Positions 27,229 through 58,543 of a DNA stretch of 64,000 nucleotides are shown here, in pieces; position 1 is the first letter of the stretch; each line of letters begins with the position of its first letter. The stretch is taken from contig JAMLIC010000001.1 of the NCBI GenBank assembly GCA_023954375.1, forward strand, positions 310,001 to 374,000, given 5' to 3'. A program made the translations under genes and the position numbers. Under the pieces are notes generated by a model. That model was given only the letters and a program-made list of their open reading frames with translations, made no database searches and was not told the origin of the DNA. Source of the DNA: Planctomycetota bacterium (GTDB lineage: Bacteria; Planctomycetota; J058).

Positions 27229-27696
27229 ATGCCCGAGCTTCCGGACGTGGTCGTCTACGTCGAGCGCCTCGAGCGCCGCGTCGTCGGGCGGGCGCTAGAG
27301 CGCGCGCGGCTCGCGAGCCCCTTCGTCCTCCGCACGGCCGACCCGCCGATCGGCGCGGCCGAGGGGAGGGTCGTCCGCGAGGTCCGCCGGCTCGGGAAGC
27401 GGATCGTGCTCGCGCTCGAGGGCGACCTGTTCCTCGTCCTCCACCTGATGATCGCGGGGCGCCTCGCGTGGGCCGACCGCGGGGCGAGGATCCCGGGGCG
27501 GATCGGCCTCGCGGCCCTCGACTTCCCCACCGGGACGCTGCTCCTCCGCGAGGCCAGCACGAAGAAGCGCGCGTCGATGCACCTCGTCCGCGGGGAGGAC
27601 GCGCTGCGGCAGTTCGACCGCGGGGGGCTCGAGGTGCTCGAGGCGACGCTGGCCGACTTCCGGGCGGTCCTCGCCCGCGAGAACCACACCGTGAAG
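27229..27696 (+). pseudogene. mutM: Host formamidopyrimidine-DNA glycosylase, 5' half (disrupted)
   Basis: This is the first 156 codons of an Fpg/Nei-family DNA glycosylase: MPELPDVV gives the catalytic Pro and Glu right after Met, with RRLGKRIVLALEGD, HLMIAGRL and REASTKKRASMHLVRGEDAL following as expected. Similarity stops at ENHTVK, where the integrated element begins. The missing part is found at 58094-58543 in the same orientation and phase. Joining the two at the common TGAAG gives a 305-codon gene. Left as it is, the truncated frame runs a short way into the element and lacks the helix-two-turn-helix and zinc finger needed for DNA binding, so it should be inactive. Confidence 0.9.
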
Positions 27697-27718
27697 CGCG
27701 CGCCCGGAAACCCCTACC
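27670..27718. other. attL: left junction of the element
   Basis: Host fpg reads up to the core TGAAG (27692-27696). Element sequence then starts with a 22-base arm (27697-27718) that is inverted relative to the arm at the right end (58066-58087) with 19 of 22 positions matching. Just inside, the arm's ACCCCTACC is mirrored again by GGTAGGGGTT (27720-27729), making a 10-bp hairpin. Confidence 0.82.
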
Positions 27719-29617
27719 GGGTAGGGGTTCCCTGGCAGACGCACAAGCGGATGCGAGGGAGCCGATACCCAGCTCGTCCTTCAGGGCGATCGTGCCCTTC
27801 TCGAGGACGTACGCCGGGTCGGACTGCCGCCGCCATGCCGCGTTCTTCTCGAACCGCAGCGTGATCCCGCCGACCACGGCGCGGATCGCGGCCTTCCGCT
27901 GGGAGGGGTCCTCCGAACCGAGCCACTCGCGGACCTCGCGGATCCGCTGCAGATAGGCCTCGGCCGTGCGGGCGACGGCCTTCGGGTTCGGCTTCGCCGA
28001 CTCGGCCGCGGAGAGCTGCGCCTCGAGCGCGCCCTTCTGCTCCTTTGCCGCTATGAGCTGCCGCTGGACGTCGTCGAGGAGCTCGCGGCGCATCTTCGGC
28101 GACTCGAAGCGCGACCAGAGCGTCTTGATCCTCGCGTCCACCGCGGCGATCGCCGCGCGGAGCTTCGGCGTCGGGTCCTCGGGCATCTTGCCCTCCCGCT
28201 CGGCCAGGACCTGCTCGATCGCCTTGCGGAGCTTCTTGACCGGCTGATCGAGGATCACGGACTCGAGGAGGTCCAGGACGTAGGCGTCGAGCTTGGGCGC
28301 CTGGATCGACTTCCAGGGGCACTTGTCGGGCTCCTGCTTGTTCGTCGCGCACGTGAACAGGAGCGGCTTGTTGCCCGCCCGCTTCATGACCTGCATCTTC
28401 CGTCCGCAGTGCTCGCAGGTGACGAGGCCGCCCAGGAGGTGCGGCGAGGTGCGCACGCGGTCGGTGTAGGTGCCGCCGCGGTTGATCGGGCGGCGCGAGG
28501 CGATGATCGCGTTGGCGCGGTCCCAGACCTTCTTCGTCACGAAGGCCAGCGCGGGGTCGAGCTCCTTCACGACCCAGTGCTCCTGCGGCACGGACCTCCC
28601 GGCCTTGCTCGGCACCCGTGTCGGATCGTCGGCCGCCACGCGGTGCAGGACCCCGTCGTCGCCGCGGCGCACGCCCGAGAAGGCGCTCCGCGAGCGCCGG
28701 TTGTAGTAGTCCTGCCCGTAGTAGATCGAGTTCTTGACGAGGCGCACGACCGTGTCGCCGCGCCAGCCCTTGCCGCCGGGGCTCGGGATCCCGCGCGCGA
28801 TCAGGTCGCGCGCGATCGCCATCGGGACCTTGCCGTCGATCACGCCCTCGTAGCAGAGCTTGATCGCCTGCGTGCGGCTCTCCACGATCGTCTTCGCGAG
28901 CACGATGTACTGGCCGAGCGACTTGCCGATGCCCGCCGGCCCGAGCGGGCCGCCGGCCTTCTTCACGCGCGGCGGGAGCGGCTCGTCGAGCTCCTCCGTG
29001 CCGTCGACCGTGTAGCAGTGCAGGAAGAGGTCGTCGGTCACGACGTACCGGCGCAGCGGCGTCCCGTCCGCATCGCACACGATCCGGTCGTAGCCGTAGT
29101 CCGGCTTGCCGCCGACGTGCGCGCGCTTCTGCTGCGCGGCCCGGAGCTGGCCCTCGAAGACCTTGCCGCTGAGGTCGGCGCTGAAGTCCGCGGCCCTGCG
29201 CCGGTGCAGGCTGAAGATGACCTCGAACATGGGGTCCGTGGACCACAACCGGTCGCGCCTGAAGTAGACCGCGATGTTCTTGTCGAAGCACGGCGCCAGG
29301 AAGCCGGCGACCGTGTACGGGTTCCTCTCGCGGCTCAGGCGCGACACGTCGTCGATCACGATCACCTGCTCGACGTCGGCGCGAGGCTCGTAGGCCTTCA
29401 CGGCAGCGAGGAGCTTCGCGCCACCCTTCCGCTGCTCGAGGGCCAGCGTGCCCGAGACCGCGTCGTCGACGAAGAAGGGCCGCACGACCTCGTCCGCGGT
29501 CCGGACCACCTCGTCCGCGGTGATCTCGTCCTCCTGCCGGCCGAGGCTCTCGTGCTGCTTGTCCCCGCTGCGCCTCATGTAGATCCAGACCGCGCGGCGC
29601 TTCGTCTTGGTCTTCAT
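27697..29617 (-). CDS. Large serine recombinase (integrase) of the element; frame runs on through attL
   Basis: ATG at 29617 overlaps the upstream stop (ATGA). The resolvase/invertase domain contains YMRRSGDKQHESLGRQ, with nucleophile Ser17, and VIDDVSRLSRE. A recombinase domain follows (IARDLIARGIPSPGGKGW, VRLVKNSIYYGQ), then a zinc ribbon (CEHC ... CATNKQEPDKC) and a coiled coil, as in large serine integrases. The frame has 640 codons inside the element and does not stop at attL; it continues antisense through host fpg to 27125 (830 codons). In the excised circle it would instead end after 675 codons at the TAG at 57987-57989. Integration therefore swaps its last roughly 33 residues. It catalyses insertion into fpg, by inference from position and the paired attP arms. 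Confidence 0.93.
27709..27729. repeat. 10-bp inverted repeat inside attL
   Basis: AACCCCTACC, one G, then GGTAGGGGTT form a perfect stem. The right half plus following bases (TTCCCTGGC) resembles the right-end arm GGTAGGGGTGTCCTGGC in direct orientation, so it may be an extra recombinase-binding site. A hairpin terminator is the alternative, but no T-run follows. Confidence 0.55.
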
Positions 29618-57108: not shown

Positions 57109-57933
57109 GGCCAGGAGCTTGCCGCCGGTCTGGCAGGTGGCGCAGTAGTTCGTCTCGTGGTCCCCGCGGACGATGCGCTGCACCGGCGCGGCGCACACGG
57201 GGCAGGGCTGCTTGTAGCGGCCGTGCACGGCCATGCCCTCGCGAAAGGCGGTCACGCCCTCGTTGGGAAAGCCCTCGCCCGCCTCAATGCGCAGCCGGTC
57301 GGTCCACTCGTTCAAGACATCCTTGATCGCCTTGAAGAGCGCCTTCGTCTCGTCGGCGGTGAGGCGCGAAGTGAGCTTCACGGGCGAGAGGCGGGCGCGG
57401 TGGAGGATCTCGTCCGAGTAGGCGTTGCCGATTCCGCTGACGAGCGTCGGATCGACGAGAGCGACCTTGATCGTATGGTTTTCGCGAGCGAGGACCGCCC
57501 GGAACTCGTCGAGCTTCGCGGTCAGGACCTCGAGGCCGCCGCGGTCGAACTGCCGGAGCGCGTCCTCGCCGCGGACCAGGTGCATGGAGGCGCGCTTCTT
57601 CGTGCTGGCCTCGCGGAAGATCAGCGTCCCGGTCGTGAAGTCGAGCGCGGCGAGGCCGATCTTGCCGGGGATCTTGGCGCCCTTGTCGGCCCACGCGAGA
57701 CGGCCCGCGATCATGAGGTGGAGTACGAGGAACAGGTCGCCCTCGAGCGCGAAGACGATCCGCTTCCCGAGGCGCCGGATCTCGCGGACCGTCTTGCCCT
57801 CGGCGGAGCTGATCGGCGGGTCGGCTGAGCGCAGGACGAACGGGCTCGCGATCCGCACGCGCTCGAGCTTCTGCCCAACGATGCGCCGCTCGAGACACTC
57901 GATGTAGACGACGACGTCGGGGAGCTCGGGCAT
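57049..57933 (-). CDS. mutM: Element-encoded formamidopyrimidine-DNA glycosylase (rescue copy, tail altered by IS)
   Basis: A 294-residue Fpg/Nei glycosylase that removes oxidised bases and cuts abasic sites. MPELPDVV places the catalytic Pro and Glu. RRLGKRIVFALEGD, HLMIAGRLAW, STKKRASMHLVRGEDALRQF, GIGNAYSDEILHRARLSP (DNA-binding helices) and the zinc finger CPVC...CATC are all present. By eye it is about 80% identical to the host copy. The IS changed its end: after CQTGGKLLA it now reads VARETASKSPEATCRTLRR in place of the old 27-residue tail, but catalytic and zinc parts are whole, so activity is likely. The att-site region (57462-57492) is recoded. In the circular element it would lie 53 bases after the recombinase stop, on the same strand. 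Confidence 0.93.
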   Translation of the reverse strand: MPELPDVVVYIECLERRIVGQKLERVRIASPFVLRSADPPISSAEGKTVREIRRLGKRIVFALEGDLFLVLHLMIAGRLAWADKGAKIPGKIGLAALDFTTGTLIFREASTKKRASMHLVRGEDALRQFDRGGLEVLTAKLDEFRAVLARENHTIKVALVDPTLVSGIGNAYSDEILHRARLSPVKLTSRLTADETKALFKAIKDVLNEWTDRLRIEAGEGFPNEGVTAFREGMAVHGRYKQPCPVCAAPVQRIVRGDHETNYCATCQTGGKLLAVARETASKSPEATCRTLRR

Positions 57934-58093
57934 GACCTCGTCGATGGTGGCACGGCGCGCCTGGAGAACAAGCGCCCTGACCGCGGCTACGATGCCGGCC
58001 GGAGACCCCGCCGGCGCGCTGCGTCCTCGACGTCCTTGCGCGAGAAATGGAGGACTCCGGCCTGGGGTAGGGGTGTCCTGGCGCACGTTGAAG
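57934..58093. other. attR and right end of the element
   Basis: The arm GGTAGGGGTGTCCTGGCGCA plus CG (58066-58087) ends at TTGAAG (58088-58093), after which host fpg continues in frame. The TAG at 57987-57989 is the recombinase stop in the circular form. The promoter of the element's fpg must lie here or in the adjacent host sequence; no clear boxes seen. Confidence 0.8.
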
Positions 58094-58543
58094 GTCGCGC
58101 TCGTCGACCCGAGGCTCTTCAGCGGGATCGGCAACGCCTACTCGGACGAGATCCTCCACCGCGCCCGGCTCTCCCCGGTGAAGCTCACGTCCCGGCTCAC
58201 TCCGGAGGAGACGGAGGCGCTCCTCCAGGCGACGAAGGACGTCCTCACCGGGTGGACCGAGCGGCTCCGCGCCGAGGTCGGCGAGGGCTTCCCGAACGAG
58301 GGCGTGACCGCCTTCCGCGAGGGCATGGCGGTCCACGGGCGCTACAAGCAGCCGTGCCCGGACTGCGGGGCGCCGGTCCAGCGGATCGTCCGCGGCGACC
58401 ATGAGACGAACTACTGCCCGAGGTGCCAGACGGGCGGCAAGGTCCTCGCGGACCGCGCGCTCTCGAAGCTCCTCAAGGCCGACTGGCCGCGGACGCTCGA
58501 GGAGCTCGAGGAGCGCGCGCCGCGACGCGGGCCGGAGCGCTGA
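58094..58543 (+). pseudogene. mutM: Host formamidopyrimidine-DNA glycosylase, 3' half (disrupted)
   Basis: 149 codons and a stop, continuing the frame of 27229-27696. VALVDPRLFSGIGNAYSDEI is the helix-two-turn-helix region. EGFPNEGVTAFREGMAVHGR and the zinc finger CPDC...CPRC follow, then the tail ADRALSKLLKADWPRTLEEL and ARG/PRO-rich end. Without the N-terminal catalytic Pro/Glu it should be inactive. The stop overlaps the next start (TGATG). Confidence 0.9.

What the first reader, a model, noticed from the sequence alone, without database searches (positions are those of the whole stretch)
27229..58543. Mobile element that breaks host fpg/mutM and brings its own replacement fpg
The host DNA glycosylase gene is split exactly into codons 1-156 and the remaining 149 codons by a 30.4-kb serine-recombinase element. 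The element encodes a highly similar Fpg (57049-57933) at its right end with all catalytic parts. Keeping target function by carrying a spare gene would make insertion in a repair gene nearly cost-free. In the circular form this fpg would follow the recombinase by 53 bases on the same strand, so rescue and integration genes would travel as one block. I know of elements restoring a gene's 3' end, but not of one carrying a full fpg for this purpose.
Basis: partly seen in the sequence, partly recalled or inferred. Interest (0 to 1): 0.94.

Follow-up and report, generated by a model that had tools for sequence, protein, structure and literature searches.

The report
Gene-breaking element carrying its own spare
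A mobile DNA element sits in the middle of a bacterial DNA-repair gene and carries a second, slightly clipped copy of that gene that likely takes over the broken one's job; a relative in another genus splits the same codon and carries a whole copy, and the element's two attachment sites appear to fit the two common spellings of the target.

Summary
In detail: a 30,397-bp element splits a host Fpg-family gene at codon 156 and carries its own fpg. Co-travel passed a strong test. A second Planctomycetota genus (G134) has an 87%-identical recombinase splitting the same codon of a distant fpg (67% identity), with different cargo and an unbroken element-type fpg. Element fpg divergence (dS 0.205) lies within the backbone range (0.175-0.266); the two host genes differ at dS 0.61. 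Two further features appeared. (1) attP is double: tandem 51-bp dyads centred on GA and CA. The G000 host (GA) recombined at the GA site, the G134 host (CA) at the CA site; 29 of 30 uninterrupted host genes have CA or GA there. (2) The recombinase frame runs through attP into a conserved 49-51-residue tail; integration at CA cuts it at a stop codon supplied by the target. The element fpg also has clustered A/T-ending codons around its would-be att site. Rescue, site choice and self-protection are inferred, not tested.

The parts
27229..27696 (+). host Fpg-family gene, codons 1-156 (N half)
58094..58543 (+). host Fpg-family gene, last 149 codons and stop (C half)
27692..27696 (+). left copy of the shared core TGAAG (attL); central GA at 27693-27694
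58089..58093 (+). right copy of the shared core TGAAG (attR); central GA at 58090-58091
27697..27718 (+). right arm of attP site 1 (used site, GA centre)
58065..58088 (+). left arm of attP site 1
27719..27769 (+). attP site 2, complete and unused here (CA centre at 27744-27745); its counterpart is the site used in G134
27746..29617 (-). large serine recombinase, conserved 624 codons (ends LASA); integrated frame runs on to 27125 (830 aa)
57987..58093 (-). remainder of the recombinase C-terminal tail and its stop codon, parted from the gene by integration
57110..57933 (-). element-borne Fpg-family gene, codons 1 to ~274, with five A/T-ending codons (149, 151, 153, 158, 161) around att-equivalent codon 155
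55127..55211 (-). 3' end of the element fpg, cut off by the IS
55220..57109 (-). IS256-like insertion sequence in the element fpg (8-bp duplication GCCAGGAG at 55212-55219 and 57110-57117); family match is weak (partial, below the curated cut-off of NCBIfam)
30364..32514 (+). backbone gene shared with the G134 element (Walker-like motifs by eye; no Pfam or NCBIfam match)
32906..33343 (-). HTH_3 (XRE-type) regulator, shared with the G134 element
33364..36078 (+). DEAD/ResIII helicase, shared with the G134 element
36923..50374 (.). cargo: Druantia type II-like defence island (DruM-type methylase, Vsr, DruF-like, DruE2, DruK/Cas4-like nuclease)
50660..52627 (-). DUF4277/DDE transposase lying between what look like the two parts of a metallo-beta-lactamase-fold gene (only the first part has a Pfam match)

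Best explanation
The 30,397-bp element at 27697-58093 splits codon 156 of a host Fpg-family gene, was likely put there by its own large serine recombinase, encodes a second Fpg-family gene that likely replaces the broken one, and has two tandem attP sites whose centres, GA and CA, match the crossovers of the two known insertions. Shown by sequence: the split host gene; the element-borne fpg; a second insertion at the same codon of a distant fpg in another genus; the two attP dyads and which one recombined in each case; the in-frame conserved tail. Inferred working: the free circle makes the long recombinase (673-675 aa). It picks the attP whose central dinucleotide matches the host (third base of codon 155 plus first base of codon 156; mostly C or G, then A). 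Integration breaks the host gene. At a CA site it also cuts the recombinase to 624 aa, because the target's antisense strand supplies TGA. The element's fpg then supplies the lost activity, so insertion would cost little. The cluster of A/T-ending synonymous codons around the element copy's own would-be att site may lower self-insertion; this last step is the weakest.
For: Split, core and length. Second insertion: G134 contig C899, host N half 78676-79143, C half 6643-7095, recombinase 87% identical, element-type fpg 44355-45263; the same contig is JANJTH010000829.1, a Planctomycetota MAG. With the whole contig compared, window DNA aligns only in the backbone (27224-36798), the fpg genes and the att/tail ends, apart from one 62-bp hit in host flank; window 36.8-55.1 kb has no match. 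dS between elements: recombinase 0.263, ATPase-like 0.175, HTH 0.266, helicase 0.197, fpg 0.205; host fpg pair 0.61. Element fpg dN/dS 0.225. Dyad centres computed without naming the core: GA with 20/25 pairs, CA with 17/25 pairs, in both elements; 0 of 2,000 shuffles reach site 1 in either element; site 2, 1 of 2,000 (G000) and 0 of 2,000 (G134). Crossover lies within TGAAG in G000 and at CA in G134 (sequences). 30 host fpg genes without a stop before residue 293: CA 18, GA 11, AA 1. Of 392 genomes only G000 and G134 hold the arm pattern (up to 3 mismatches), two sites each; the backwards control pattern hit two genomes once each. The 2-bp centre must match for efficient recombination and CA and GA belong to different orthogonal pairs (phiC31 integrase, PMC3936721, passages). 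Tail: unique part differs at 12 bases, 11 in third positions, dN/dS 0.05; 6-nt in-frame indel. A/T-ending codons within 20 nt of the crossover: 5/13 against 4/290 elsewhere (G134, p 7e-6), 5/13 against 11/262 (G000, p 3e-4); of 32 genes only the two element copies show an excess at p<0.05.
Against: Only two insertions can be read in context. No expression or activity data. The genome has a canonical MutM elsewhere, so need for the spare is unproven (estimated contamination 5.93%, so that gene's contig could be foreign). The G000 copy is cut by an IS. In G134 the fpg is 37 kb from the element end. Relative P0005 lies on an 82,743-bp contig, and no protein among the 120 listed fpg relatives shows a contig of that length; the list was cut at 120 of 7,869, so this is neither support nor refutation, but no fpg was seen for that element. 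The fpg tree does not resolve the two element copies as one clade (AU p 0.299 for one clade; element plus host of G000 not rejected either, p 0.113). The A/T codon cluster was found after the fact and is one shared lineage; the element copy is 32/40 and 28/40 identical to the two used attBs, which are 29/40 identical to each other, so by overall likeness it is no worse a target. In G000 the recombinase is not cut short but runs into host DNA.
Confidence: 0.77

Rival explanations
1. The fpg on the element is ordinary passenger cargo, for instance a useful DNA-repair gene, and its match to the target gene is a coincidence or a relic of an earlier recombination with a host fpg.
For: Genome has other Fpg/Nei genes including a canonical MutM. 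The fpg tree leaves room for separate captures. The fpg is not next to the recombinase in G134. No fpg was seen for the P0005 contig (list cut).
Against: The remaining cargo differs between the two elements while the fpg is kept under purifying selection (dN/dS 0.225) with backbone-like divergence; the kept gene is the target's own family in both.
Confidence: 0.16
2. The double attP is not a matched pair for two target spellings but a leftover of tandem integration, or one of the two dyads is a binding site for an accessory factor.
For: Only two recombined examples; tandem integration can leave att relics (recalled).
Against: Both sites are complete dyads conserved in both elements (45/51 and 47/51 bases), are direct repeats of each other (35/51 and 37/51), and each was used in one of the two insertions with the host-matching centre.
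Confidence: 0.15
3. The second fpg is a duplicate of this host's gene picked up by the element in this lineage.
For: Element and host copies of G000 share 84% of residues and sit in one clade (support 96/97) with metagenome sequences; a joint clade of the two is not rejected (AU p 0.113).
Against: dS 0.49 to the G000 host gene against 0.205 to the G134 element copy; the G134 copy is 92% identical to ours but far from its own host gene.
Confidence: 0.04

Closest known systems
tRNA-dependent lysogeny of actinobacteriophages (Guerrero-Bustamante and Hatfull 2024, PMC10865867; abstract, discussion and passages seen)
   Same: Integration breaks a host gene without rebuilding it at the junction, and the element carries a whole gene of the same kind elsewhere in its genome that makes good the loss.
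   Different: There the target is an essential tRNA and the integrase a tyrosine recombinase, with complementation shown by experiment; here a protein-coding repair gene, a serine recombinase, and no experiment.
Integration-dependent immunity of mycobacteriophage BPs (PMC4557955; passages seen)
   Same: attP lies inside a reading frame, so integration shortens the protein, by 33 residues there and 49-51 here.
   Different: There the repressor is cut and loses a degradation tag; here the recombinase itself is cut, at a stop codon given by the target, and only at one of two sites.
Large serine recombinases with exchangeable central dinucleotides (phiC31, PMC3936721, passages; Bxb1 and Kp03, PMC10083194, passages)
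   Same: Domain make-up, dyad attP of about 50 bp (size from recall), 2-bp centre that must match.
   Different: There, sites with different centres were built by engineers; here two natural tandem attPs with GA and CA centres, fitting the wobble base of a conserved codon.
Islands that restore the gene they enter (Islander, PMC4383910, start of abstract in listing; stated for many islands in PMC12884075, passage)
   Same: Site-specific insertion in a conserved gene with the cost lowered.
   Different: tDNA islands restore the disrupted gene with sequence within the island; here the insertion is mid-gene and neither junction rebuilds it.
Filamentous vibriophages with attP1 and attP2 (PMC3089051, PMC4246890; listing and start of abstract only)
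   Same: A natural pair of attP sites.
   Different: From recall: XerCD (tyrosine recombinase) sites that fold together in single-stranded DNA to make one site; not alternatives with different centres for a serine recombinase.
Engineered cleave-and-rescue gene drives (recalled; no paper read)
   Same: Break the target, bring a copy spelled differently at the cut site.
   Different: Natural, bacterial, recombinase-based; protection by spelling untested.

Membership tests
Large serine recombinase integrative element | recombinase with Resolvase, Recombinase and zinc-ribbon domains at an element end | tested here: met
Large serine recombinase integrative element | short shared core, attL/attR at both ends, dyad attP with central dinucleotide | tested here: met
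Large serine recombinase integrative element | empty site in a relative | tested here: met
   G149
Large serine recombinase integrative element | active excision and transfer | not testable with these tools
   no reads or bench work; different cargo and host in G134 is indirect evidence
Lysogeny dependent on a carried copy of the target (tRNA-dependent lysogeny type) | host gene not rebuilt at either junction | tested here: met
Lysogeny dependent on a carried copy of the target (tRNA-dependent lysogeny type) | element carries a gene of the same kind as the target | tested here: met
   (cut near its 3' end by an IS in G000, unbroken in G134)
Lysogeny dependent on a carried copy of the target (tRNA-dependent lysogeny type) | carried copy needed for survival or fitness of the integrated state | not testable with these tools
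   genome also has a canonical MutM
Lysogeny dependent on a carried copy of the target (tRNA-dependent lysogeny type) | tRNA target and tyrosine integrase | tested here: not met
   protein gene and serine recombinase; so it works like this system but is not a member
Integration-dependent shortening (BPs type) | attP inside a reading frame with a conserved tail | tested here: met
Integration-dependent shortening (BPs type) | integrated protein shorter than the free form | tested here: inconclusive
   met in G134 (624 aa); P0002, P0004 and P0005 also end at LASA/MASA (stop codons not seen); not met in G000
Canonical Fpg/MutM (NCBIfam TIGR00577, PRK01103) | score above curated cut-off | tested here: not met
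   element copies 139.6 and 132.9 bits against cut-off 203.3; Pfam Fapy_DNA_glyco over its cut-off and alignment to solved MutM chains are met for the G000 copy
Druantia type II defence system (cargo) | DruE2 helicase, DruM methylase, Vsr, DruF | tested here: inconclusive
   DruE2 (1722 bits), DruM2 (346 bits) and Vsr match well; DruF match is partial (residues 30-220, E 2.9e-11); completeness not assessed

The most novel reading that the evidence does not exclude
A natural break-and-rescue element: one recombinase with two tandem, dinucleotide-orthogonal attP sites (GA and CA) that together read both GC-rich spellings of a conserved target codon, a target-gene replacement respelled around its own att site so that the element does not break it again, and a recombinase that the target's antisense stop codon shortens on arrival.
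Probability: 0.4. Interest if true: 0.94.

Novelty: new variant of a known kind. Interest (0 to 1): 0.82.

Why it matters
It would show that a site-specific mobile element can use the middle of a conserved protein gene as a safe harbour by carrying a spare, which in the papers seen here was shown for tRNA targets only. The double attP would be a natural answer to a general problem of site-specific elements: a 2-bp centre that must match exactly, in a target whose codon wobble base varies between hosts. Both claims can be tested in plasmid assays in E. coli, and the pair of orthogonal sites would be a ready-made tool.

Tried and rejected
Recent host duplicate: disfavoured on dS and G134. Misassembly of the split gene: made unlikely by G134 at the same codon and the empty site in G149. 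Single attP with a palindromic arm: rejected after G134 showed site 1 intact at one end and site 2 recombined. Viral or plasmid origin: no recombinase relative in viral contigs or plasmids, no exact att-arm match in viral contigs; the phage record collection was not searched. Distant recombinases (23 loci, 31% identity or less): no fpg in their flanks of up to about 1.5 kb; too distant to count as refuters. The phylum searches scored only the top 3-5 candidates of each genome, and two partial fpg matches there with other ends (G165, G115) were not examined. The longest identical run between the element fpgs (63 nt over codons 144-165) looked telling, but another run is 62 nt, so I give it no weight. 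The fpg tree was not decisive. Literature: ten searches, each shown as a listing of 3 to 15 papers out of up to 390; among the papers listed I saw none on an element with tandem natural serine-recombinase attPs of different centres or with a whole replacement of a protein gene, but only the named papers were opened. Mageeney 2020 on regulated gene integrity is not held.
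Full report
WHAT IS THERE. The window is part of a 10.1-Mb genome (G000) of the same family as a Planctomycetota MAG. A host gene of the Fpg/Nei family is split after codon 156 (27229-27696 and 58094-58543); joined, the halves give an open frame of 305 aa. Between them lie 30,397 bp bounded by TGAAG. The same-genus genome G149 has the gene unsplit, with matching flanks. 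At the left end, pointing left, is a large serine recombinase. At the right end, also pointing left, is a second Fpg-family gene, 232/276 identical to the host's. In the circular form the recombinase frame would stop 53 nt before it.

The element fpg is itself broken: an IS256-like insertion sequence (55220-57109) with an 8-bp target duplication cuts it after about codon 274, and the 3' end lies at 55127-55211. Two other full copies of the IS in the genome are 99-100% identical, so the event is likely recent. What is left covers what aligns with solved MutM chains. The gene is also not the canonical MutM: the element copies score under the NCBIfam cut-offs, while a gene on contig C28 passes two of them. 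The spare therefore guards an Fpg-family paralogue, and the cell is probably not without MutM (estimated contamination of this genome is 5.93%). Between its ends the element carries a Druantia type II-like defence island.

A SECOND INSERTION. One other genome of the 12 in the class has a close recombinase: G134, same family, another genus, 87% identity. In a sample of 392 genomes of the phylum no other was found; there only the top three candidates of each genome were scored. In G134 too a host fpg is split at codon 156, the halves lying 71.6 kb apart (C899:6643-7095 and 78676-79143). That host gene is only 66-67% identical to ours. Inside the element is an unbroken fpg, 91.6% identical to our element's copy. 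Outside the backbone (recombinase, ATPase-like gene, regulator, helicase), the fpg genes and the att ends, the two elements do not align (whole contig); the G134 cargo that I scanned (8 proteins) is mostly metal efflux pumps and P-type ATPases. Among 57 genomes with a close fpg in the sample, only these two show the split; two partial matches with other ends (G165, G115) were not examined. Synonymous divergence of the two element fpgs (0.205) lies inside the range of the backbone genes (0.175-0.266), whereas the host pair stands at 0.61. The simplest reading is that the fpg travelled with the backbone. The tree agrees that the G134 copy is foreign to its host, but does not resolve the two element copies as one clade. 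In G134 the fpg is 37 kb from the element end, so the 'one block' of the finding is not general. A third relative, P0005, lies on an 82,743-bp contig that I could not read; no protein among the 120 fpg relatives listed shows that contig length, which leaves it open.

A DOUBLE ATTACHMENT SITE. Rebuilding attP from both elements shows two tandem 51-bp dyads, direct repeats of each other (35/51 and 37/51 bases), conserved between elements (45/51 and 47/51). Their computed centres are GA (site 1, 20/25 paired) and CA (site 2, 17/25 paired) in both elements. In G000 the host sequence is GTG-AAG, so GA, and site 1 has recombined while site 2 is whole at 27719-27769. In G134 the host is CTC-AAG, so CA; site 2 has recombined at CA and site 1 is whole at the other end. 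Serine integrases need a matching 2-bp centre, and CA and GA belong to different orthogonal pairs in phiC31 sites (PMC3936721, passages). In the 30 host fpg genes for which I held DNA (25 from the loci, 5 from the class; none has a stop before residue 293), the centre is CA in 18, GA in 11 and AA in 1. Two sites thus cover 29 of 30. That the two sites exist to do so is inference; two insertions are few. The arm pattern with up to three mismatches occurs in no other of 392 genomes; the backwards control hit two genomes once each.

A RECOMBINASE CUT ON ARRIVAL. The recombinase frame runs through attP into a tail of 51 (G000) or 49 (G134) residues. Beyond the att sites the tails differ at 12 bases, 11 of them third positions (dN/dS 0.05), with a 6-nt in-frame indel; over the whole tail the other two frames give ratios above 1. 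The tail is therefore very likely coding and selected in the free form. Integration at CA puts the target's antisense TGA straight after the codons for LASA, giving 624 aa, as in G134. P0002, P0004 and P0005 end at the same place, P0005 as MASA, which fits three more CA insertions, but their DNA was not seen. In G000, joined at GA, the frame instead runs 830 aa into host DNA. What the tail does is unknown; in phage BPs a tail cut off by integration carries a degradation signal (PMC4557955, passages).

A RESPELLED SPARE? In both element fpgs five of the 13 codons within 20 nt of the crossover point end in A or T, against 4 of 290 elsewhere in the G134 copy and 11 of 262 in the G000 copy. None of 30 host genes shows an excess at p<0.05 in the 20-codon window around it. 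This looks like a target respelled to escape the recombinase. But it was found after the fact, it is one lineage, and the element site is 32/40 and 28/40 identical to the two used host sites, which are 29/40 identical to one another. I hold it as a suggestion.

VERDICT. The element likely breaks its target and replaces it. The nearest precedent is tRNA-dependent lysogeny (PMC10865867; abstract, discussion, passages), which differs in target and recombinase. I file it as a new variant of serine-recombinase integrative elements, with the double attP as the most unusual part.

Noticed in passing
window 36923-50374: Druantia type II-like defence island (DruM, Vsr, DruF-like, DruE2 and a DruK/Cas4-like nuclease) as cargo.
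   Followed up: partly
window 50374-50757 and 52489-53544, with 50660-52627: A DUF4277/DDE transposase appears to split a metallo-beta-lactamase-fold gene in the element (second part without a Pfam match).
   Followed up: partly
window 54312-54626 and 54690-55130: Two neighbouring related small proteins with shared motifs (by eye) and no Pfam match.
   Followed up: no
window 27125-29617 (-): In the integrated state of G000 the recombinase frame runs 830 aa, through attL, antisense into the host fpg and into the end of the upstream kinase gene.
   Followed up: partly
G134 C899:7095-44336 (L023, L024, L011, L010): About 37 kb of metal-resistance and other cargo lies between the recombinase tail remnant and the element fpg; where it came from is unexplained.
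   Followed up: partly
G000 C28 (L002), C103 (L001), C32 (L005): Further Fpg/Nei genes in the host; C28 passes two canonical MutM cut-offs, C103 falls just short (211.7 against 212 bits), C32 was not scored against NCBIfam.
   Followed up: partly
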